Shown piece after piece: positions 2,452-24,595 of a DNA stretch of 64,000 nt. Position 1 is the first letter of the stretch, and each line of letters opens with the position of its first letter. The notes beneath the pieces are model-generated. The model ran no database searches and was not told the origin of the DNA. It saw only the letters and a program-made list of their open reading frames with translations. Position numbers and translations under genes: made by a program. Source of the DNA: Pelotomaculum sp. (GTDB lineage Bacteria > Bacillota > Desulfotomaculia > Desulfotomaculales > Pelotomaculaceae); assembly GCA_018435055.1 (NCBI GenBank), contig JAHDOA010000004.1, forward strand, positions 62,001 through 126,000, written 5' to 3'.

Positions 2452-2919
2452 ATGATCGGCCGGGAGGAAACTATTCTTGTGCTTGAAACGGCCATAGATG
2501 ATATGAATCCTGAGATATACTCATACCTGCTTGACAAACTGGTTAAGGAAGGCGCGCTGGACACCTACCTGACCCCGGTGTATATGAAAAAGAACAGGCC
2601 CGCCAACCTCCTGTCGGTAATCTGCCGGAAAGAAAAACTAGAAAAACTGCTGGAAACAGTTTTCCGGGAGACGACCACGCTGGGTGTGCGCATCAAGGAA
2701 GAAAAGAGGAGGGTCTTGCCCAGGGGTTTTGCCGAAGTAAAAACCCCTTGGGGAGAAGTAAAGGTGAAAATTGGTTTTTTAGATGAGGACAAAAAAGAAA
2801 TACTGCAATTTGCTCCCGAATACGAGGAATGCCGGAGCATATCTGAAAGACACGGCGTCCCTCTAAAAAAGGTGTATGCTGCCGCCCTGCAGGCCTTTTC
2901 GCAGCTAAAGGGAAAATAA
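2452..2919 (+). CDS. larC2: LarC2: C-terminal part of nickel-pincer cofactor nickel insertase
   Basis: The 155-residue product matches only the C-terminal domain of LarC, the CTP-dependent enzyme that inserts nickel into the pyridinium bis-thiocarboxylate nucleotide. Conserved stretches are LETAIDDMNPEIYSYLLDKL at the start, then LTPVYMKKNRPANLLSV, FRETTTLGVR and APEYEECRSISERHGVPLK. I chose the ATG at 2452, which has an AGGGAGG ribosome binding site; the frame is open 25 codons upstream but that part has no site. In Lactobacillus plantarum LarC1 and LarC2 are joined by programmed frameshifting. Here LarC2 is on the opposite strand, convergent with larE, so it must be made as a separate polypeptide. 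Confidence 0.88.
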   Translation: MIGREETILVLETAIDDMNPEIYSYLLDKLVKEGALDTYLTPVYMKKNRPANLLSVICRKEKLEKLLETVFRETTTLGVRIKEEKRRVLPRGFAEVKTPWGEVKVKIGFLDEDKKEILQFAPEYEECRSISERHGVPLKKVYAAALQAFSQLKGK

Positions 2920-2940
2920 ATAAACGGGTCAAAAACCGGG

Positions 2941-3756
2941 CTAACTGGTTCCTTTCCTAATGGCCTCATCCATGCTGCCGCTGCGGAAACCCTTCAGGTC
3001 CAGCGCCGTATAGATATAACCTATTTCTTTAAATTTAGCGGCGATATCTACGGCCTTTTCCAGCAGTAATTTAAAGCATACCGGGGGGACCTCTATACGG
3101 GCCAGGGCGCCGTGGTGCCTTACCCTGAGCTGGCTTATCCCCAGGTTTTTTAAATATTTTTCCGCCTGGGACACCATCGCCAGGCTTTCCGGGGAGATTT
3201 CCGTGCCGTATGGAAACCTTGTGGCCAGGCAGGGGTTGGCCGGCTTCATTGCGGTAGGCAAGGCGAATCGCCGGGAGGCGGCATATATTTCCTGTTTCGT
3301 TAGCCCGGCCTCCTGCAGCGGCGATCTTATTCCCAGTTCCTTGCCGGCGCGTATACCAGGGCGGTATTCGGCGGCGTCGTCAGCGTTCACCCCGTCGATC
3401 ACGCAACTGACGCCATTTTCCCCGGCCACCCTGCGCAGCGCCGTGTAAATCTCTTTCTTGCAGTGATAGCACCTGTCGGGTGGGTTGCCCCTGAACGCAG
3501 CGCTTTTCAGTCCATTGGTCTTTAAAACAATATGCCTTGTACCGATAGCCCCTGCCAGCGCTTTGGCCTCGTCAACCTCACCAGGCGGATATATTTCCGA
3601 GGCCGCGGTGACGGCCAGCGCTTGCTCGCCCAATACATCGCGGGCGACCTTGAGCAGCAGGGTGCTGTCAACACCGCCGGAGAAGGCCACCAATGCTTTC
3701 CCGCAGTCTTTTAAAATATTTCTCAGCCGGTCCAGTTTCTGCTCCAGCTCTTTCAT
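2941..3756 (-). CDS. larE: LarE, ATP-dependent sacrificial sulfur transferase
   Basis: This 271-residue protein of the PP-loop ATP pyrophosphatase superfamily has the FSGGVDSTLLLKVA motif near residue 25. LarE converts the biscarboxylated pyridinium nucleotide from LarB into the bis-thiocarboxylate. A cysteine in PANPCLATRFPYG falls at residue 176, the position of the sacrificial cysteine known in L. plantarum LarE. Two further cysteines in RCYHCKKE (96 and 99) suggest the variant with three cysteines that can hold an iron-sulfur cluster, as described for some archaeal and Thermotoga enzymes; this is inference. It is downstream of larC1 on the same strand with a 55-base gap. Confidence 0.92.
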   Translation of the reverse strand: MKELEQKLDRLRNILKDCGKALVAFSGGVDSTLLLKVARDVLGEQALAVTAASEIYPPGEVDEAKALAGAIGTRHIVLKTNGLKSAAFRGNPPDRCYHCKKEIYTALRRVAGENGVSCVIDGVNADDAAEYRPGIRAGKELGIRSPLQEAGLTKQEIYAASRRFALPTAMKPANPCLATRFPYGTEISPESLAMVSQAEKYLKNLGISQLRVRHHGALARIEVPPVCFKLLLEKAVDIAAKFKEIGYIYTALDLKGFRSGSMDEAIRKGTS

Positions 3757-3811
3757 AGCAAAACCAACCTTATTAACACGACTTAAGTACTAGAGAAATC
3801 GATATGTCGTT

Positions 3812-4753
3812 TTATTGTTCGTTTTTTTCGTATGGAAGTCCGTGGCTGGACTGATGATCATGACTATGTTGGTACAGGCCGCCGCAATGATCAGGTCCGT
3901 ACCCGCGCTCGTGCTGGTGGCTGTGCTTATGTTCATGCATGCGTGTGTGCGCCATTTTGTAGTCGCGCGGGCGGACATGGTGGTGTTCCCGGTTATGATC
4001 GTCGTGGCGGGAGATAGAAAGCTGTGTTTCAGCCACGCAGCGTTCACCGACAATCAGCCTTAACAGGTTCGGGCGCTCCATCACTCTTTTGCCGGCGCCG
4101 TACCCTACTTTTTCCATGGTCATGGGCGGCAAATCGATAAAGGCGTCCGTCAGGACGGCAAGCAGGGCCGCCCCGGTGGGAGTCACCAGTTCACCAGCAA
4201 TACCTGTTCCATAGACAGGCACGTTGTGTAATATCTCCAGGGTAGCGGGAGCCGGTGAAGGAATCACGCCATGCTGGCATTTTATAAAACCCTTGCCCAT
4301 AGGCAGGGGAGAAGCATAAATCTGATCAACCTCAAGCAGGTGCAGACCCAGCACAGATCCTGCCACATCCACAATCGCGTCAACGGCGCCGACCTCATGA
4401 AAGTGAACTTGCTCCGGCGCCGTGTCATGGATGGCAGCCTCCGCCGCAGCCAGGCGAATAAACACATCCTTGCTTTTATTCTTTACTTCCGCCGGCAGGC
4501 CGCTGCCGTCAATAATCTGCAAAATATCAGCCAGGCGCCGCGCGGGTTGATCTTCTTCCAATAAATCCACAAAAACGTTGACGCAGGCTATGCCGTTTCT
4601 CTTTTCTTTTTCACAGCGCAAATCATAGCCTGTAACCGGCAGTTTAGCCAGTTCTTCTTTTAACAGAGCAAAGTCAACTCCGGCGCTGATCAGGGCGCCC
4701 AGGCACATATCCCCGCTTATGCCGGAAAAACAATCGAAATAGGCAATCCTCAT
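3812..4753 (-). CDS. larC1: LarC1: N-terminal part of nickel-pincer cofactor nickel insertase, His-rich tail
   Basis: The 313-residue protein begins MRIAYFDCFSGISGDMCLGA and continues with HFHEVGAVDAIVDV and VYGTGIAGELVTPTGAALL, all diagnostic of the LarC N-terminal domain. From about residue 248 to the end it is extremely His-rich (REHHHVRPRD, HEHKHSHQHE, QHSHDHQSSH), consistent with nickel binding or storage. The protein stops there, exactly where the LarC2 domain would begin in full-length relatives; LarC2 is found inverted at 2452-2919. The start codon overlaps the larB stop by four bases (ATGA), showing translational coupling. No LarC2 remnant was seen between this stop and larE. Confidence 0.92.
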   Translation of the reverse strand: MRIAYFDCFSGISGDMCLGALISAGVDFALLKEELAKLPVTGYDLRCEKEKRNGIACVNVFVDLLEEDQPARRLADILQIIDGSGLPAEVKNKSKDVFIRLAAAEAAIHDTAPEQVHFHEVGAVDAIVDVAGSVLGLHLLEVDQIYASPLPMGKGFIKCQHGVIPSPAPATLEILHNVPVYGTGIAGELVTPTGAALLAVLTDAFIDLPPMTMEKVGYGAGKRVMERPNLLRLIVGERCVAETQLSISRHDDHNREHHHVRPRDYKMAHTRMHEHKHSHQHERGYGPDHCGGLYQHSHDHQSSHGLPYEKNEQ

Positions 4754-5514
4754 GCCCGTTCCTCCTCAATCATCCTGGTTATGGCATTGGCCATAGCGGC
4801 GGCGCCAAAGCCGTTGTCGATGTTCACCACGCTTACGCCTGCGGCGCAGCTGGTGAGCATGCTGAGCAGGGCCGAGAGCCCGTTGAAACTGGCGCCGTAG
4901 CCTACGCTGGTTGGCACGGCGATGATCGGTTGATCGGCCAGGCCGCCTACCACACTGGCCAGGGCCCCCTCCATCCCCGCTACCACAATGATAACGTTAG
5001 CCCAGCGAATTAGCTCGAGCTTGTCCAGCAGCCGGTGGATCCCCGCTACACCCACATCATAAACCCGCCTGACCTCGTTCCCCATTACCGCCGCGGTAAC
5101 AGCCGCCTCTTCAGCCACAGGCAGGTCAGCGGTGCCGGCGCTCATCACCAGTACTTTGCCCCTGAAGACGGCTTGTTCACCCCGGTTGACCACGATAGTC
5201 CGGGCCAGCTCATTGTATATCGCATCCGGGTATATTTCTTTGACCCTGTCATAAGCTTCTTGTGCAGCCCTGGTGCCGATAATACTCCTGCGCCCGTCAC
5301 ACAGCTTATTAAAAATTTGGGCAATTTGCTCAGCAGTTTTACCCTGGCAAAAAATCACTTCAGGAAAACCCTTGCGCAAGGCGCGGTGGTGGTCAACCAG
5401 CGCAAACCCCAGGTCCTCGTAGGGCAGGTTTTTTAACCTGGCAAGCGCGTCTTCGACGGCTACTTGATTATTTTTAACATCCTCCAGCAATCTGCGCAGT
5501 TCATCTTTAACCAT
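4750..5514 (-). CDS. larB: LarB, pyridinium-3,5-biscarboxylic acid mononucleotide synthase
   Basis: This 254-residue protein carboxylates nicotinic acid adenine dinucleotide and hydrolyses the product, the first step of nickel-pincer nucleotide synthesis. Its C-terminal half resembles PurE (AIR carboxylase), with MSAGTADLPVAEEAA, VVAGMEGALASVVGGL and the VPTSVGYGASFNGLSALL loop. The N-terminal region contains ARLKNLPYEDLGFALVDHHR, typical for LarB. It overlaps larC1 by four bases and follows the formyltetrahydrofolate cyclo-ligase gene by 43 bases, so all may share one transcript. No lactate racemase (larA) is present in the window, so the nickel enzyme served is elsewhere. Confidence 0.93.
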   Translation of the reverse strand: MVKDELRRLLEDVKNNQVAVEDALARLKNLPYEDLGFALVDHHRALRKGFPEVIFCQGKTAEQIAQIFNKLCDGRRSIIGTRAAQEAYDRVKEIYPDAIYNELARTIVVNRGEQAVFRGKVLVMSAGTADLPVAEEAAVTAAVMGNEVRRVYDVGVAGIHRLLDKLELIRWANVIIVVAGMEGALASVVGGLADQPIIAVPTSVGYGASFNGLSALLSMLTSCAAGVSVVNIDNGFGAAAMANAITRMIEEERA

Positions 5515-5557: not shown

Positions 5558-6163
5558 TTAGCCGGCCTGATGCAGCCTGATTAACCGTTTTTCAGTTAAA
5601 ATAATGTGGACAGGCATATCGTGCGCTTCCGGGAAAACATCAGGCAGTACTTGAAAATCGTAGGCCAGGCCGATGTAAATGGTCCCCTCTCCCGTACGGC
5701 GTAAAAAGCGGTCGTAGAAGCCGTAACCATAGCCAATACGGTAGCCGGCAATATCAAAGGCTACCCCTGGCGTAATGACCATGTCCAGCGCCGCGGGATC
5801 CAGCGGCCGCACGGCCTGTGGCCTGGGCTCGGGGATACCCCAGGCGCCGGGCTGCAGGTCGGCGGGAAAATTCACAATTAAAGATGGCGTCAATAAACGT
5901 TTAGCCTGATCAGTTACCGGCGCCGCCACGCTCTTTCCGTCAGCCAGCGCCCTGGTTACCAGGTCCGCTGTGCGCGCCTCGTTGCGGCAGTCCAGGTAAA
6001 CCATGATACTGCGCGCGCTGCGGTATTCATCCAGCGCCAAAAGCCTGCCGGTGATGAACGCGCTTTTTTCAGCCACCTGCCCGGGTGTTAGCGCATTTCT
6101 TTTCTTAATCAGGCTGCTTCTCAACTGCTTTTTCATCACTTTACGTTCCACAGGCATTTCCAT
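5558..6163 (-). CDS. 5-formyltetrahydrofolate cyclo-ligase
   Basis: The 201-residue protein matches the MTHFS family, which uses ATP to convert 5-formyltetrahydrofolate to 5,10-methenyltetrahydrofolate. Signatures are the early basic segment KKQLRSSLIKKRNALT, the IMVYLDCRNE strand and the strongly conserved VDP-like stretch ending RIGYGYGFYDRFL. The start at 6163 has an AAAGGG site; a second ATG nine codons on (MKKQLRSS) is also usable. It stands upstream of larBC1E on the same strand. The pairing with lar genes may be chance operon packing. Confidence 0.9.
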   Translation of the reverse strand: MEMPVERKVMKKQLRSSLIKKRNALTPGQVAEKSAFITGRLLALDEYRSARSIMVYLDCRNEARTADLVTRALADGKSVAAPVTDQAKRLLTPSLIVNFPADLQPGAWGIPEPRPQAVRPLDPAALDMVITPGVAFDIAGYRIGYGYGFYDRFLRRTGEGTIYIGLAYDFQVLPDVFPEAHDMPVHIILTEKRLIRLHQAG

Positions 6164-6298
6164 TCCCTTTTAACCCATTTGCGCTGCCCGCTAAAACATT
6201 TTTTACTGGATTAGCAGGATTTCAGGGATTTATTTTGAAAAGGCGGCTTTTAAAAGGCTTCCCCCCGCACTAATCAGTCGTTTTGTCATATTGAACAA

Positions 6299-6730
6299 CT
6301 AAAGCTGATAAACATCCTTGCCGGTCATAACACGGATGCCGTTTTCCTGGAGCTCTTTAACCGCTTCATCGAGCTGTTCTACCCGGAACACAACCAGGGC
6401 GGCATTGGACGCCTTCTGGACAAAGGCGTAAAGATATTCAATATTCACGCCTGCCCGGTCAAGCAGTTGAAGGACCCCGGCCAATCCGCCCGGAACGTCA
6501 GCCACTTCTACTGCTATTACATCAGTGAAAGCAACAGTAAGGCCCTCTTCCTTCAAAATCTGGTAAGCCCGATCAGGATCATTGACAATCAGCCTTAAAA
6601 TGCCAAAATCAGTAGTGTCGGCTATGGACAGAGCACGGATGTTAATGCTGTTTTTCCCCAGCAGCGCAGTTACCTGGGCCAGACGTCCCGACTTGTTTTC
6701 CAGGAAAACCGAGATTTGCTTGACCTTCAT
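6299..6730 (-). CDS. Tandem ACT-domain protein
   Basis: The 143-residue protein consists of two ACT domains and nothing else: MKVKQISVFLENKSGRLAQV begins the first, and IAVEVADVPGGLAGVLQLLD the second. ACT domains bind small ligands, usually amino acids. Stand-alone double-ACT proteins of this type often accompany phenylacetate-CoA ligase genes, but no such gene is next to it here. It is flanked by 135 and 123 bases without genes and is probably transcribed alone. The ligand is unknown. Confidence 0.88.
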   Translation of the reverse strand: MKVKQISVFLENKSGRLAQVTALLGKNSINIRALSIADTTDFGILRLIVNDPDRAYQILKEEGLTVAFTDVIAVEVADVPGGLAGVLQLLDRAGVNIEYLYAFVQKASNAALVVFRVEQLDEAVKELQENGIRVMTGKDVYQL

Positions 6731-6853
6731 AGATTAACCCCCTTTTTATTTGCATGAGAATGTACGCACAAAGAATTCAGATCACGATATCAATTACTCC
6801 TAAAATTTTTATTCAACGGTACTGGCAAGGTTACCTGCCCAATTTAAAATCAC

Positions 6854-8227
6854 TTATAAAATCTCTGCTTTAATTTGACAATCCCTTTCCAGTTCAAGAT
6901 AAGAACACCCGGTCAGGTCCCTGCCCCTGCTGTCAAAAGCCAGGCCGGGGAGCAGGATCAACCCGGGTTTTCTTCCTGATTTTTTACCAGGGTACTCAGC
7001 CAGAGAAAGCTTAAAATCATTTACCGTAAGCAGGCCGGCGGCGCCAATTGAGCCGCCGAAAAAACGATTTTTTACCGGCCTCGTTTTGACTTCTGCTTCT
7101 TCTTTTAAAAACCGCTGCAAACCCAAATTAATTACATCCGCCGCCAGTTCGGAAGTCAGCGCCACTGCCTCCTGTACTCCATGACGCCTGATCACCCGGC
7201 CAATCTCTTCAATCAACCTGGGGTCAATGTCGTAATCCATCACCAAACCAGATCGCCTGCCTGGTTTTTTCTCAAGCTTTGTTGAATAAGTATTATTTCC
7301 CCTGCTTACGGTTATTTTCGGGCTGCCGGATTTTAAAACCCTCCTGAAAGCTTCCACCCTGCTTAAAGCAGGCAGCCCGTTTACGGCCTGGATGACATCT
7401 CCGGCGCGCAATCCTGCCAGTGCGGCTGGAGAACCGGCAATCACACCGGCAATTATTGGTTCCAGGTCGTTTATCAGCGGGGGTTCGACTGTTAAAGGCG
7501 CCGCCGTTTTCCCCCGCAGCTGTGACACAAAGTCATTAATTTTCCCCCTGAGCGATTGCCCAAAGCGCAGGGCCGGATGCGCCAGCCTGGTATACCCGGG
7601 CAAAAATAAGCGTATGGTCTGGGCCCCTTGTTCGCCCAGGTATATTACTGTTTCTTCCAAATCAGCCCACCCGACCAGGTGCGGCAAGGCCAGCATACTG
7701 CCGTGATAGGGCAAGCCATACCTTTTCAGCAAACCGGCGCTTTGAATAGACCGGCCGGGATTGGCGTCTCCGGTCAAAAACGCCCGGCCACTTTCACTGG
7801 CGCTGTTTAAAGAAAGATAAACCACAACCTTCCCCAGTCTGATTAAAAAGTCAACCATCTTTTCATCAAGCAGGCTGCCGTTGGTAGTGATCTGGATCGG
7901 TGTCCGGGGAAAGGAATGGCGTACAAGACTTAAAATTTCCCTGATGGCGGGATGGGTTAACGGCTCTCCCTCAATAATCCGTGACGCTGACTCGCCGATA
8001 ACCACCGGCCTGCCCGGATTAATGAAGGGAAGCACTTCTCTTATTTCTTCCAGGGTGCAGGGTTTAATCCTGCTGACCATTACCCCGGGCGGGTTCTGGC
8101 TGTGGGAGCAAAAAACGCAACTGACATTACACCGGGATGTCACGGGCAAGATGTTTGCTTCAGCCGCCCCGTTCAATATAAAGGTTTCAGTGTAAGCGGC
8201 AGTCTGGCGCCCCGTTAATTCACCCAC
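6854..8227 (-). CDS. Radical SAM protein with internal PDZ domain
   Basis: The 457-residue protein has the radical SAM motif CNVSCVFC near residues 33-40 and a GESASRIIEGEPLTHP segment before ITTNGSLL. A PDZ-like domain occupies roughly residues 255-325 (GSPAALAGLRAGDVIQAVNG). The C-terminal 130 residues are not recognised but end with GLAFDSRGRDLTGCSYLELE. It recalls the DUF512 / radical SAM-PDZ family, in which the PDZ usually comes first; here it follows the SAM barrel. Substrate and reaction are unknown. Tandem DnaA boxes lie 36-53 bases upstream of its start. It is probably monocistronic. Confidence 0.75.
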   Translation of the reverse strand: MGELTGRQTAAYTETFILNGAAEANILPVTSRCNVSCVFCSHSQNPPGVMVSRIKPCTLEEIREVLPFINPGRPVVIGESASRIIEGEPLTHPAIREILSLVRHSFPRTPIQITTNGSLLDEKMVDFLIRLGKVVVYLSLNSASESGRAFLTGDANPGRSIQSAGLLKRYGLPYHGSMLALPHLVGWADLEETVIYLGEQGAQTIRLFLPGYTRLAHPALRFGQSLRGKINDFVSQLRGKTAAPLTVEPPLINDLEPIIAGVIAGSPAALAGLRAGDVIQAVNGLPALSRVEAFRRVLKSGSPKITVSRGNNTYSTKLEKKPGRRSGLVMDYDIDPRLIEEIGRVIRRHGVQEAVALTSELAADVINLGLQRFLKEEAEVKTRPVKNRFFGGSIGAAGLLTVNDFKLSLAEYPGKKSGRKPGLILLPGLAFDSRGRDLTGCSYLELERDCQIKAEIL

Positions 8228-17728: not shown

Positions 17729-18805
17729 ATGAGAAGGATACCAGCTAATTCGCTTAAACCGGGCATGAGGGTTGGGCACAATATTTTCAACAGCCGGGGC
17801 GAGACTTTAATCAGCAGGGGTGTCGTCCTTAACAACGGTTACATTGAGAGTTTGAAACGGTTGGGCATCCCGGCTCTTTATATAATTGACGACAGCTTGC
17901 CGGATTTCTATGTCAGCGATGTTATCGAAGAAAAAAGCAGGCTGGACGCCATAAAACTGGCTAGAACCATTCTTAACGGGAATAAACCAGCCAAATCCCG
18001 TCTGGATAACGTTATAATAAATGAACTTAGATCCACTGTCAGCGGGATAATAGACCAGTTAATCGAGAATCACAACCTGATGGTGAACCTTGTAGACATC
18101 CGCAGTATCGATGACTATCTTTTCGGCCATTCGGTAAATGTCTGTGTGCTTTCTTTAATAACCGGCATATCTTTGGGATACAGCCGTAAAAAGCTAATGA
18201 TGCTCGGCATGGGCTCTTTGCTGCATGATATGGGCAAAACCCTGATCCCGGCCTGTATCCTTAATAAGCCCGGGCCGTTGAGCGGCGAGGAGTTAAACGT
18301 TATTAAACAACACCCCCAGTATGGATATGCTATTCTCGACGACAGTAAATCAGGTATTGAGGCGCTGGCAGCAATAATAGCGCTGCAGCATCATGAACGT
18401 TATAACGGTGAAGGCTATCCGAAAGGGCTGAGCGGCAACAACATTCATGAATTTTCGCAAATCGTGGGAATAACTGATGTTTTTGACGCCATGACCGCCG
18501 ATCGGGTCTACCGGAAAGCGCACCCGCCATTTGAAGTATACGAGATGCTGGCCGGTTCCGGCAACTATTTTTTTGACTACAAACTGGTGCTCGCTTTTCT
18601 TGGCAACATTGCCGCTTATCCAGCCGGTTCACTGGTCAGGCTAAGTTCTGATGAAATCGCGATAGTGGTTGAAACGCCAAAAGGTTTTTCCCTCTACCCC
18701 ATAGTTAAGATCCTGTACGACGCCGGCGGCAATAAGCTGGCGGAGCCGCTTGACATTGATCTGTCGCAGCAAAAAGAAAAAACCATTGTAAAGGTCCTCT
18801 CTTAA
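17729..18805 (+). CDS. HD-GYP domain phosphodiesterase-type protein
   Basis: The 358-residue protein has an N-terminal regulatory part (MRRIPANSLKPGMRVGHNIF) and an HD-GYP domain from about residue 120. The metal-binding motifs are GHSVNVCVLS, LLHDMGK (residues 165-170) and HHERYNGEGYPKGL (221-234), followed by GITDVFDAMTADRVYR. HD-GYP enzymes degrade cyclic di-GMP. All main residues are present, so it is likely active. Its stop codon overlaps that of the convergent NlpC/P60 gene. Confidence 0.9.
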   Translation: MRRIPANSLKPGMRVGHNIFNSRGETLISRGVVLNNGYIESLKRLGIPALYIIDDSLPDFYVSDVIEEKSRLDAIKLARTILNGNKPAKSRLDNVIINELRSTVSGIIDQLIENHNLMVNLVDIRSIDDYLFGHSVNVCVLSLITGISLGYSRKKLMMLGMGSLLHDMGKTLIPACILNKPGPLSGEELNVIKQHPQYGYAILDDSKSGIEALAAIIALQHHERYNGEGYPKGLSGNNIHEFSQIVGITDVFDAMTADRVYRKAHPPFEVYEMLAGSGNYFFDYKLVLAFLGNIAAYPAGSLVRLSSDEIAIVVETPKGFSLYPIVKILYDAGGNKLAEPLDIDLSQQKEKTIVKVLS

Positions 18806-20945: not shown

Positions 20946-21320
20946 TTAAATTTCTAAGATTTCCCTGGTCATTTTAAGGATCTCATCGGGATTGAAGGGC
21001 TTGGTGATGTATACGTCCGCTCCTACATCCATCCCCCGGCGCTTGTCAAAAACCTGCCCTTTTGCGGTGAGCATTACAATATACACTTCTTTCATCCCCA
21101 TAACGTGCTTTACGGCGCCGCACACCTCAAAGCCGTTCAAACCAGGCATCATCACATCGAGAAAGACCAGTTCAGGGCTTTCTTTAGTGATTGTTTCCAG
21201 GGCGTCCTCTCCGTTATCCGCAGTGAGCAGCAATACCCCTTCTTCCTCTATATCTTCAAGCGTATGCTTCAAAAGAAGCCTTATATGCAGCTCATCGTCA
21301 ACTATCATGATTTTCTTCAT
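20946..21320 (-). CDS. Single-domain response regulator (CheY-like receiver)
   Basis: The 124-residue protein is one receiver domain: acidic pair in IMIVDDELHIR, phospho-acceptor Asp in LVFLDVMMPGLNG, Thr in MLTAKGQ and Lys in ITKPFNPDEI. It has no output domain. Its start overlaps the stop of the upstream GAF/HD-GYP gene by four bases (ATGA), so it belongs to the operon with the hybrid kinase at 22715-24595 and could be its phosphorylation target. Confidence 0.93.
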   Translation of the reverse strand: MKKIMIVDDELHIRLLLKHTLEDIEEEGVLLLTADNGEDALETITKESPELVFLDVMMPGLNGFEVCGAVKHVMGMKEVYIVMLTAKGQVFDKRRGMDVGADVYITKPFNPDEILKMTREILEI

Positions 21321-22690
21321 ATTGACCCTGCCTTTCTATTTGCCTGCCTTTCTACTGGAATCCTGTTCTCGCTACAAGCAGTAAAAAACGCTTTGACCAC
21401 CCCGGGGTCAAACTGTGTGCCGGAATTTGCCCTGAGTTCTTCAAAAGCCTCAGCCAGTTCCATCCTTTCCCGGTACGGCCGGTCGGTAGTCATGGCGTCG
21501 AAAGCGTCAGCCACAGAGATTATCCTCGCAATAATATCTATATCGTTACCCTTCAGCCCCTCAGGGTAACCGCTGCCGTCGTACCGTTCATGATGGTGCT
21601 TAACGCCTGGAATAATCCCCTTGAGGTGTTTGATATGATCAAGGATTTCTTCGGCATAGATGGGGTGCATCTTGATCTCCGCAAACTCATCAACGGTCAG
21701 TTTTCCCTTTTTCAGGAGCACACAGTCCCTTATGCCAATCTTGCCGATATCGTGCAGGACTGCCGCCAGTTCAAGGTGTTCCATCTCCGACTCGGTAAGC
21801 CCCAGTTCTTTGCCGACAGCCATACTGTAATTCATCACTCTTTTTATGTGACCCCCCGTGTAGGGGTCCCTTTTTTCAATAGTCTCAGCAAGGATATGGA
21901 CTGTTGTAAGAAATGTTTCTTTCAGGCTGTCATAAAGCCTCGCGTTTTCAATATCGGCCGCCGCCTGGAAAGCGAGGGCTGACAAAAGCTTTAAGTCTTC
22001 AGCCGTATAATGCGCCCGTTCTTCACTGCTGACATATATAACACCGATAACCCTGTCTTTTATTTTCAGGGGAGCGCACATCAGGGAGCTAACCCTGACA
22101 GCCCCGCTGACATATCTATCATCAGATGATATATCGTTTACTATTTCAGCCCTGCCGCTATGGAAAACACCTCCAGCGATGCCTATCCCTATCTTCAGCC
22201 CCTCCCCGGGGTGTAGCTCCCTGCCTGAAGACGCTAATAATTCAAACACGCCGCTTTCTTCATTTTTCAACATTACTGAGATGTTATCCGCCTTAATCAG
22301 CATCTTCGCCACATCAACCACCAGCTGGGCGGCTTCTTTGGGGTCCAGGCTGGCTGTCAGCTTTTCGGCGATGTCATAAAGCAGGGTGATTTCCCTGTAC
22401 TTTTTAAGCGCTTCCCGGCCAAGCGCCTTTTTTTCCAGTTCAAGGTTGGCCAGGCATTACAGCAGGAAGGCCAAAACCGACGCCTTTTCACCCCCGTAAA
22501 CCATACCAATTGCCCTGTTTTCCAGGGCGATTGGATACTCACAGGACAGTCCTTCGTCCATTTCCCCGATAATTTTTTTCCCTTTACTATCCATAATACA
22601 TACAGGGGAGTTGATCAGGTTGATCATTTGGCGGATAACGCTGTGGATTTCGTCTTTTAAAAAAAGCCGCCTGAGATCTATTTGGATCAT
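21317..22690 (-). pseudogene. GAF and HD-GYP regulator interrupted by an in-frame TAA
   Basis: From an ATG at 22690 (GAGGGAG site) the frame encodes 77 residues of an N-terminal sensor-like region, then a TAA at 22459-22457. It continues in the same frame without any shift through a linker (ANLELEKKALGREALKKYRE), a GAF domain and a complete HD-GYP domain (VLHDIGKIGIRD, HHHERYDGSGYPEGL). The join reads AFLL-stop-CLANLELEKK and looks like a single nonsense change. A shorter product could start at GTG 22321, keeping most of GAF and all of HD-GYP. The gene lies between the hybrid kinase and the receiver gene. It may be a pseudogene, a split gene, or a sequencing error. Confidence 0.75.
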
Positions 22691-22714
22691 GTGGCCGGTC
22701 TCCCTCATTAATTT

Positions 22715-24595
22715 TTATACATTGGCTTGATCAATACTAATTTTGCCGTTTTGCTTGCCCAGAATCAGCATAAAGATATTTTCAAACCCTTTTTCAAACC
22801 GCAGGGCCTTGAGCTGGTCATAGCCATCGTTATCTGAAAACAGGGAATCAACAATAATCATGTCCGGCTTTGATTCTCTGGCGTTTTTGATGCACCCTTC
22901 CAGATCGTTTACCACCACGACTGTAAAGCCCTTGGTTTCCAGCACCTCAGCCAGGGTTTTTGACGCAGACTCATCTACATCGACTACTATCACTCTCTTT
23001 TTGGAATTCCCCCTTGAAACGAGTGTGCCTATCTCTTTAAGCAGTTGTTCTGTCCTGACTGGTTTTGTAAAATAGCTGTCGATGCCGATGCGGAAACCCC
23101 TGTCCATGTCTTCCATAATGGAAAGAATAATAATGGGGATATTCATGGTATCAGGATCACTTCTCAGCACAGCTGCCGCATCAAATCCGTTCATTTTAGG
23201 CATCATCACATCAAGGATAACCAGGTCAGGCTTCAGTTCTTTCACCCTGGCGATCGCCTGCAAGCCGTCTTTTGCCTCAGCCACACTGTAACCGTCCGCT
23301 TCCAACTCCTGCCTTAGCAGCGCCCTTATGTTGGTGTCGTCGTCTACTACCAGTATTTGCTTCCTTCCCGCAGAATGATCTTTACTTACAGTAACCACGT
23401 GTTCTCGCAGCTGTCTTACCAGGTTGTCCACATCGATCGGCCTGCCTGCCGCACCTGAATTTCCAACAGGCAAAGTAAATGAAAAGTTGCTTCCCTTGCC
23501 GGGCTCGCTTTCCACCCATATCTTACCGCCGTGATAATCTATGATCTGCTTGCAGATAGCCAGGCCCAATCCGGTTCCCCGTGGTTTTTCCGTAAGGGTG
23601 TCGCCGACCTGTTTAAATTTATCAAATACCTTTCGCAGGTCAATACTGCTTATCCCAACACCGGTATCGATAACGCTGATTATTACTTCTTCTCCAGTCG
23701 TCCTGGCCCTGAAGGTTATCGACCCTTCGCTGGTAAACTTTACAGCGTTTGAAATTAAATTGATGAACACCTGGATAAGCCTGTCCTCATCACCGGCCAG
23801 ACCGGGCAAGTCTTCCTCTATATCCTTGATCAGCGCAATATTCTTCTGTGCAAAAAGGGATGTTGTGGCCGCAATTGCTCTTTCAATAATACCGGCAACG
23901 GAGATCCTTTTCATTTTCCATTCGATCCTCCCCGCCTCCAGCTTCGCTATATCCAGCACATCGTTGATTAGATCGGTCAGTCTTTCTCCTTCGGCAATGG
24001 TGATGCCAATATTTTCCCTTACCTGCCTTATGGCATTATCGGCTTTTTTGTTACCGGGTTCTACCCGGGGAAAAATTACTTCATCTAATTTCTTCTGGGT
24101 AATACGGGCAAAACCGAGCACAGATGTAAGCGGGGTACGAAGCTCGTGTGACACTGTGGATAAAAAATCTGTTTTAAGCTGATCAAGCTCCTTTAGCTTG
24201 TCGTTGATTTCCCGGAGAGCCTCTTCCGCTTTTTTTCGTTCAATAATCTCTGATTGCAGTTTCTTATTTGTTTCTACCAGTTCTTCAAAGAGGTGCATCA
24301 TTAACTTTGCTACCTGGGCGTCTACCACCTCTACACCGGAAGGGCAGTTTATGTGCACCAATTTCTTTACGGCGTCGCTGCCTGTAACCTCAAAGACCAG
24401 TTCAAGTCCGTCCTCTCTGAGCAGTTTACGAAAGTCAGTAAACACGGGTGTTTTTAATTCACCGGCTAAAGATATACCGGGAGCATCCGGCTTTATGTCA
24501 CAGATGCCTATCACCTCGGCCTCTTTTAAGGAAGAGAGGGCGTCCAGGATCGATACCCCGCCATTGCCTGCTCCGATAATGCCTACCTTGATCAT
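22715..24595 (-). CDS. Hybrid histidine kinase with N-terminal dinucleotide-binding-like domain
   Basis: The 626-residue protein starts with a Rossmann-like domain (residues 1-95, [16 protein letters not shown]) similar to NAD(P)-binding dehydrogenase folds. A coiled linker (about 100-140) and a kinase core follow: phospho-His 150 in [10 protein letters not shown]-box [11 protein letters not shown] near 281, and DTGVGIS and GTGLGLAIC. Two receiver domains follow: the first has Asp 462 in [11 protein letters not shown] and Lys in FTKPVRTEQ; the second (about 533-626) has Asp 583 but ends early without the usual Lys. It seems to be soluble. The Rossmann domain suggests redox or metabolite sensing, which is inference. 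It heads an operon with the interrupted HD-GYP and receiver genes. Confidence 0.88.

What the first reader, a model, noticed from the sequence alone, without database searches (positions are those of the whole stretch)
22715..24595. Hybrid histidine kinase with an N-terminal Rossmann-type domain
Residues 1-95 look like a dinucleotide-binding domain (GIIGAGNGG) fused to a kinase with two receivers, with no transmembrane helix. This suggests direct sensing of NAD(H), NADP(H) or a related metabolite. The second receiver ends early.
Basis: partly seen in the sequence, partly recalled or inferred. Interest (0 to 1): 0.5.

Follow-up and report, generated by a model that had tools for sequence, protein, structure and literature searches.

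The report
Kinase with NAD-type Rossmann sensor domain
A cell-internal bacterial sensor kinase begins with the cofactor-binding half of a metabolic enzyme, a sensing module that also recurs in chemotaxis-type receptors and gene activators of related bacteria, so these proteins may read the cell's redox state directly.

Summary
ORF 22715-24595 (-) is a soluble 626-aa hybrid kinase: residues 1-93 form a Rossmann domain, then one long helix, HisKA, HATPase_c, an intact receiver and a second receiver that matches only 76 of 111 profile positions. A model of residues 1-135 (pLDDT 85.6) matches NAD-bound Gfo/Idh/MocA dehydrogenases (Z up to 13.5); no catalytic domain follows. The domain recurs: 62 of 113 genomes of the class have a match. 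Among 124 distinct copies collected (not a random sample), 66 precede sigma-54 activators, 49 MCP signalling domains, 4 PAS-HTH, 1 HD-GYP and 3 histidine kinases. In the 52 kinase and receptor copies GxGxxG is invariant and position 33 acidic (51 Asp, 1 Glu); 11 of 66 sigma-54 copies have lost that acid. The kinase domains nest in the receptor group. All three kinase genes share an operon with a GAF-HD-GYP gene and a single receiver. Sigma-54 versions stand beside a methylmalonyl-CoA operon (7 chosen loci) and, at the BkdR position, before a bkd-type operon (6 chosen loci). Best reading: an NAD(H)-responsive cytosolic input driving a phosphorelay with c-di-GMP output. Fold and pocket residues are shown; ligand, response and output are inferred. 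The papers searched do not describe this module.

The parts
22715..24595 (-). hybrid histidine kinase gene, 626 aa, stop included
   Evidence: Pfam; orthologues
24317..24595 (-). Rossmann input domain, residues 1-93; G8, G10, G13, D33, T71
24176..24319 (-). long helix from residue 93 towards HisKA (about residues 93-140)
   Evidence: helix 93-134; draws helix 93-177, low-confidence model
23930..24175 (-). HisKA, residues 141-222, H-box SHELRTPL with His150
23465..23794 (-). HATPase_c, residues 268-377
23030..23356 (-). first receiver, residues 414-522, complete
22718..22993 (-). second receiver, residues 535-626, profile positions 1-76 of 111 only; no match to the last strand and helix
   Evidence: translation
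22457..22708 (-). 83-aa ORF: N-terminal part of the operon's GAF-HD-GYP gene, ended by an in-frame TAA
21317..22321 (-). rest of that gene as an ORF: GAF and HD-GYP domains, 334 aa
20946..21320 (-). single-domain receiver, 124 aa
   Evidence: orthologues

Best explanation
The gene encodes a cytosolic hybrid histidine kinase whose only recognisable input is a stand-alone Rossmann domain of the Gfo/Idh/MocA-type dehydrogenase fold without its catalytic half. Most likely the domain binds NAD(H), and binding, or the oxidised versus reduced state, changes how the two subunits' N-terminal domains pack. That strain travels down the continuous helix from residue 93 into the HisKA bundle and sets autophosphorylation. 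Phosphate passes to the first receiver and onward to the single receiver and/or the GAF-HD-GYP protein of the same operon, changing c-di-GMP breakdown. The truncated second receiver probably serves docking or regulation. Shown: architecture, fold, conserved cofactor-site residues, conserved operon, shared module. Inferred: ligand, redox response, dimer mechanism, phosphotransfer route, c-di-GMP output.
For: Rossmann families over Pfam cut-offs on the whole protein; confident model closest to NAD(P) dehydrogenases, many NAD-bound. In 124 distinct copies the most conserved positions are G8, G13, G10, I6, T71, D33 (122, 119, 115, 112, 111, 108); in the 52 kinase and MCP copies G8, G10, G13 and T71 are 52 of 52, and D33 is 51 Asp and 1 Glu. 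The same domain fronts MCP, sigma-54, PAS-HTH and HD-GYP outputs, as expected of an input module. Kinase motifs and first receiver are intact. The kinase, GAF-HD-GYP and receiver genes stand together in all three kinase genomes.
Against: No binding or activity data exist. Isolated, the window's domain falls just below both Pfam cut-offs, and several other members also do (L002, L097; L087 has no Rossmann hit at E<=0.01). In the sigma-54 group 11 of 66 copies have neither Asp nor Glu at position 33 and 9 of 66 lack G10, so not every member need bind a dinucleotide. Both other kinase genomes also hold a Rex gene. The HD-GYP gene of the window is interrupted by a stop codon, so the output may be weakened in this very genome. 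A two-sequence model of residues 1-381 was poor in the Rossmann part (pLDDT 31-43). NAD+ sensing by another soluble kinase, KinA, was claimed and then contested (PMC5552956, passages).
Confidence: 0.52

Rival explanations
1. The Rossmann domain binds a different ligand (an acyl-CoA, an adenine nucleotide, or a catabolic intermediate), or binds NAD only as a permanent structural cofactor while another metabolite is the signal.
For: Sigma-54 versions stand beside methylmalonyl-CoA and bkd-type (acyl-CoA) operons. Nearest solved folds include acylating acetaldehyde dehydrogenases. Some members lose the Asp33 signature. L077 shows a weak, sub-threshold CoA_binding hit (17.5 bits).
Against: The kinase and short MCP members have no other recognised sensory domain in the Pfam scans made, and their dinucleotide signature is almost invariant.
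Confidence: 0.28
2. The domain has lost ligand binding and serves as a dimerisation or docking platform; the kinase is controlled by a partner protein.
For: The catalytic half and, by aligned range, the catalytic lysine are gone. Part of the sigma-54 group has lost cofactor residues.
Against: Five cofactor-site positions are conserved in 51 to 52 of 52 kinase and receptor copies; a mere platform would not need them.
Confidence: 0.15
3. The fusion is incidental: an enzyme domain recently joined to a kinase, or a remnant with residual dehydrogenase activity and no signalling role.
For: Sequence and fold are of the kind found in NAD-dependent dehydrogenases.
Against: Three orthologues at 68-73% identity to the window's domain or its equals keep the same architecture and operon, with no substrate domain.
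Confidence: 0.03

Closest known systems
Gfo/Idh/MocA dehydrogenases, NAD-binding half (e.g. GenD2 6nor; B. subtilis myo-inositol dehydrogenase 3nt2)
   Same: Rossmann fold (Z 13.5 and 11.9), GxGxxG, acid at the end of the second strand
   Different: No catalytic domain; the lysine position (by aligned range) is Gln or Arg in the three kinases; the last helix runs on towards HisKA
Rex, redox-sensing repressor
   Same: A Rossmann domain used to read NADH/NAD+ (PMC8063818, passages); works-like only
   Different: Rex has an N-terminal winged helix and binds DNA; here the Rossmann domain comes first and the output is a kinase. Only a weak Rex match on the N-terminus (14.2 bits, cut-off 198)
BkdR-position sigma-54 activators (Bacillus-type bkd operon)
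   Same: Same Rossmann domain at the N-terminus (L097-L101, L114)
   Different: PAS-PAS-AAA+-Fis output instead of a kinase; papers describe BkdR by two PAS domains (PMC4428206; PMC3734008)
Sigma-54 activator beside the methylmalonyl-CoA (mmc) operon of Pelotomaculum relatives
   Same: Same Rossmann domain; a copy lies in the window's own genome (L002/L102)
   Different: PAS-AAA+-Fis output; one-component regulator
Soluble MCP of P. thermopropionicum-like genome G015 (L021)
   Same: Nearest relative of the kinase's domain in the tree (99/88), 54% identical
   Different: MCP signalling domain instead of a kinase
KinA of B. subtilis
   Same: A soluble histidine kinase proposed to respond to NAD+ (PMC5552956, passages)
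   Different: PAS domains, no Rossmann domain mentioned in the passages seen; the cited work argues against NAD+ as its ligand

Membership tests
Hybrid histidine kinase | HisKA with phospho-acceptor histidine and HATPase_c with N and G boxes | tested here: met
   ([32 protein letters not shown])
Hybrid histidine kinase | C-terminal receiver with acidic pocket, phospho-acceptor Asp and Lys | tested here: met
   first receiver 96.2 bits, positions 1-110 of 111; motifs [17 protein letters not shown]
Hybrid histidine kinase | autophosphorylation and phosphotransfer | not testable with these tools
   needs protein
Second receiver as an ordinary receiver | complete fold with last strand, its Lys and last helix | tested here: not met
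   profile positions 1-76 of 111 only
NAD(P)-binding Rossmann domain of the Gfo/Idh/MocA and NAD_binding_3 kind | curated Pfam score | tested here: inconclusive
   27.8 and 24.1 against 24 on the whole protein; 20.1 and 23.4 on the isolated segment
NAD(P)-binding Rossmann domain of the Gfo/Idh/MocA and NAD_binding_3 kind | fold and GxGxxG, acid after the second strand | tested here: met
NAD(P)-binding Rossmann domain of the Gfo/Idh/MocA and NAD_binding_3 kind | bound dinucleotide | not testable with these tools
   needs protein and ligand
Gfo/Idh/MocA oxidoreductase (enzyme) | C-terminal substrate and catalytic domain | tested here: not met
   HisKA starts at residue 141
Rex repressor | N-terminal winged helix-turn-helix followed by a Rossmann domain | tested here: not met
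   the Rossmann domain starts at residue 1; no DNA-binding family among the Pfam hits at E<=0.1
Rossmann input module shared with MCP and sigma-54 proteins | homology to the domain at the N-terminus of those proteins | tested here: met
   tree

The most novel reading that the evidence does not exclude
A so far unnamed cytosolic input module, an NAD(H)-reading Rossmann domain without a catalytic half, is used widely in the window's phylum to feed redox state into several kinds of output: chemotaxis-type signalling, sigma-54 transcription (the propionate-operon regulator and the BkdR-position regulator included), an HD-GYP phosphodiesterase and, in Pelotomaculum relatives, a histidine phosphorelay. 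In syntrophs it would let the cell read the electron back-pressure set by its methanogenic partner.
Probability: 0.4. Interest if true: 0.78.

Novelty: new variant of a known kind. Interest (0 to 1): 0.58.

Why it matters
In the passages I could read, BkdR and related activators are described by PAS domains and no ligand is named for them. Placing one conserved Rossmann domain at the front of these activators, of soluble chemoreceptor-like proteins and of this kinase gives one testable ligand hypothesis for all of them, with well-placed residues (G10, D33, T71) to mutate. It could also provide a direct NAD(H)-to-phosphorelay link, something that was claimed and then disputed for KinA.

Tried and rejected
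Chance or artefact: rejected; orthologues share architecture and operon. Local error behind the short second receiver: rejected; both orthologues are short too. Phage or mobile origin: two viral-contig scans gave no relatives. Other phyla: genome contigs returned 11 loci; only L027 has this architecture, and by reading the translations the other ten look like ordinary dehydrogenases. A sample of another phylum was not possible, so the range outside the window's phylum is unknown. Further kinase fusions: none in 20 more regions, most picked for odd frame lengths, but not every listed match was fetched. Structure of residues 1-381 from two sequences: poor (mean pLDDT 57.2, pTM 0.39). MAFFT misplaces the fourth strand of the Gfo/Idh rows in A2 and A3 (judged by eye); the prediction used A3 all the same.

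Limits of the counts: one search kept 126 distinct domain sequences (merged if the first 60 letters agree). One search dropped L023 and L024 (L025 was on the drop list but was not among the rows), leaving 124. L024 reads as an oxidoreductase. The L023 row stood for the receptor shared by G020 and G021, so that receptor is missing from tree and counts by my mistake. The 124 are not a random sample: they are best matches plus regions I chose. The tallies 62 of 113 and 114 of 398 include enzymes: four of the 20 regions (L178, L179, L195, L196) look like enzymes, and for G349 (L178) that was its only match. Output labels rest on short sequence motifs plus relabelling by motif and by name; eight Rossmann-bearing proteins were checked with Pfam, besides the window's. 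Neighbourhood loci were chosen, not sampled. The Rex search used one family model only (NF003995); that this model is a Rex model is recalled from its PRK05472 name, which one search gives as Rex.

Full report
WHAT IS THERE. The ORF at 22715-24595 on the minus strand is a 626-aa protein. Pfam finds a Rossmann-type N-terminus (NAD_binding_3 27.8 bits, GFO_IDH_MocA 24.1, cut-off 24 for both), HisKA, HATPase_c and two receiver stretches. The kinase motifs are intact and no 19-residue stretch exceeds a hydropathy mean of 1.39. The first receiver is complete; the second matches only profile positions 1-76 of 111. In the two orthologues, L104 (genome G015) and L105/L027 (P. propionicicum), the protein ends at a similar point, and the next gene starts about 60 and 77 bases after the stop (from coordinates); in the window the next listed ORF starts 6 bases after it. 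The truncation is therefore shared by all three.

THE N-TERMINAL DOMAIN. Pfam is borderline: the isolated first 100 residues fall just below the cut-offs. Foldseek found 48 chains at E<=0.001, chiefly NAD(P)-dependent dehydrogenases; VIA-align gave Z 13.5 to NAD-bound GenD2 over 93 residues and about 11 to 13 to myo-inositol dehydrogenases and aldehyde dehydrogenases. By the aligned ranges Asp33 corresponds to Asp35 of B. subtilis myo-inositol dehydrogenase, one of the residues changed in the A12K/D35S mutant crystallised with NADP, and residue 94 to its Lys97 (entry titles). That an acid at this place favours NAD(H), and that Lys97 is catalytic, is recalled. Position 94 is Gln, Gln and Arg in the three kinases, and HisKA, not a catalytic domain, follows. 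A larger model from two sequences was poor in this domain (pLDDT 31-43) but again drew one long helix, 93-177, into HisKA.

IT IS A SHARED MODULE. The window's genome holds a second copy at the front of a PAS-AAA+-Fis sigma-54 activator. With the 13-row profile A1, 62 of 113 genomes of the class match at E<=1e-8 and 114 of 398 sampled genomes of the phylum at E<=1e-10; some of these matches are enzymes. Of 124 distinct copies collected, by motif labels, 66 precede AAA+ activators, 49 MCP signalling domains, 4 a PAS-HTH protein without AAA+, 3 a histidine kinase, 1 HD-GYP, and 1 reads as a short protein of its own. Eight Rossmann-bearing representatives were checked with Pfam: a Rossmann family passes its cut-off in L021, L077, L165 and L009, falls below it in L002, L097 and L091, and none appears at E<=0.01 in L087, whose membership rests on the A1 profile score of 66 bits. 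Only the window genome, G015 and G016 have the kinase fusion among all copies looked at.

CONSERVATION. The six most conserved positions in the 124 copies are G8, G13, G10, I6, T71 and D33 (122, 119, 115, 112, 111, 108). In the 52 kinase and receptor copies G8, G10, G13 and T71 are 52 of 52, and position 33 is 51 Asp and 1 Glu. Against the reading: 11 of 66 sigma-54 copies and 1 of 4 PAS-HTH copies have neither Asp nor Glu at 33, and 9 of 66 sigma-54 copies lack G10. Those lineages may have left dinucleotide binding.

ORIGIN. In a tree of the 124 domains (119 columns; many forks open, bootstrap not fully settled) the three kinase domains are one clade (100/99) inside the receptor group, sister to the short MCP of G015 (99/88) and then another MCP (96/91). 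The kinase most simply acquired its input from a soluble chemoreceptor-like protein. The receptor shared by G020 and G021 was dropped by mistake and is not in this tree.

NEIGHBOURHOODS. Kinase, GAF-HD-GYP and single receiver stand in that order in the window, L104 and L105 (domains). In G021 a remnant of the kinase start (28 residues, 79% identical), a piece of the GAF-HD-GYP gene and a Rossmann-MCP remain. The sigma-54 version stands beside a methylmalonyl-CoA operon in 7 chosen loci (L102, L103, L108, L109, L110, L112, L113; by similarity to L102); in L102 the two mutase domain proteins, succinate-CoA ligase beta and fumarate hydratase pass NCBIfam cut-offs. In 6 chosen loci (L097-L101, L114) the activator precedes genes which, by order, length and N-terminal letters, form a bkd-type operon; in L097 phosphate butyryltransferase and butyrate kinase pass cut-offs, while the dehydrogenase and E1-alpha genes hit related models below cut-off. 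A B. thuringiensis paper lists the same order next to BkdR (PMC4428206, passages). The regulator at the BkdR position therefore carries this domain; I did not see a named BkdR sequence.

LITERATURE. The survey of Clostridiales sigma-54 activators lists PAS, GAF, HPr, PrpR_N, ACT, CBS, ferredoxin-type, V4R and receiver domains, not a Rossmann domain (PMC6615313, passages). BkdR is described by two PAS domains (PMC4428206; PMC3734008; passages). A redox-sensor review gives Rex as its NAD+/NADH reader (PMC8063818, passages). KinA's claimed NAD+ response was contested (PMC5552956, passages). Expression of c-di-GMP genes changes with aggregation state in co-cultures of another syntroph (PMC10787695, passages). 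The listings of searches showed nothing I recognised as describing this module. The library lacks most subscription papers; two papers I asked for, one on P. thermopropionicum transcription and one on BkdR, were not held.

REX. With one family model, no Rex over cut-off was found in the window genome or in the five other genomes of its genus (0 of 6), against 15 of the other 19 family genomes. This is suggestive for the window's genus, but both other kinase genomes hold one.

MECHANISM AND CONFIDENCE. Fold, conserved cofactor residues, lack of a catalytic half, shared module and operon are shown. NAD(H) as ligand, redox response, relay order and c-di-GMP output are inferred. I give 0.52 to the NAD(H) reading, 0.28 to another ligand or a fixed NAD cofactor, 0.15 to a ligand-free platform, 0.03 to an incidental fusion.

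Noticed in passing
window 21317-22708 (-): The operon's GAF-HD-GYP gene is interrupted by one in-frame TAA at 22457-22459; homologues align across it in one frame (71% over 448 residues to L105's protein), so the gene is freshly broken, misread, or translated from an internal start.
   Followed up: partly
L107 (G021), about 5950-7810: Decayed version of the kinase locus: remnant of the kinase start, a piece of the GAF-HD-GYP gene, then a Rossmann-MCP gene.
   Followed up: partly
L165, L169, L171, L172: About 300-aa Rossmann-PAS-Fis-HTH proteins without any AAA+ domain; one clade (100/98), possibly antagonists of the full sigma-54 activators (for L165).
   Followed up: no
L087 (G210) 2530-4869: By profile score, the Rossmann domain at the front of a PAS-GAF-PAS-HD-GYP protein: a possible direct link to c-di-GMP breakdown.
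   Followed up: no
L077, L078, L079, L190-L192 and L177: MCP-type proteins of about 490-520 aa with a further, unnamed middle region between the Rossmann and MCP domains.
   Followed up: no
L181 (G231), L183 (G382): Rossmann module encoded as short proteins of about 135 aa with no output domain.
   Followed up: no
window 17729-18805 (+): A further HD-GYP-like gene near the operon, by its sequence and similarity to the operon's HD-GYP proteins; the stretch with an NlpC/P60-like and a carbonic-anhydrase-like gene (named by eye) is syntenic with L105.
   Followed up: no
window genome G000 and genus g1: No Rex gene over cut-off in 6 of 6 genomes of the genus, against 15 of 19 others of the family.
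   Followed up: partly
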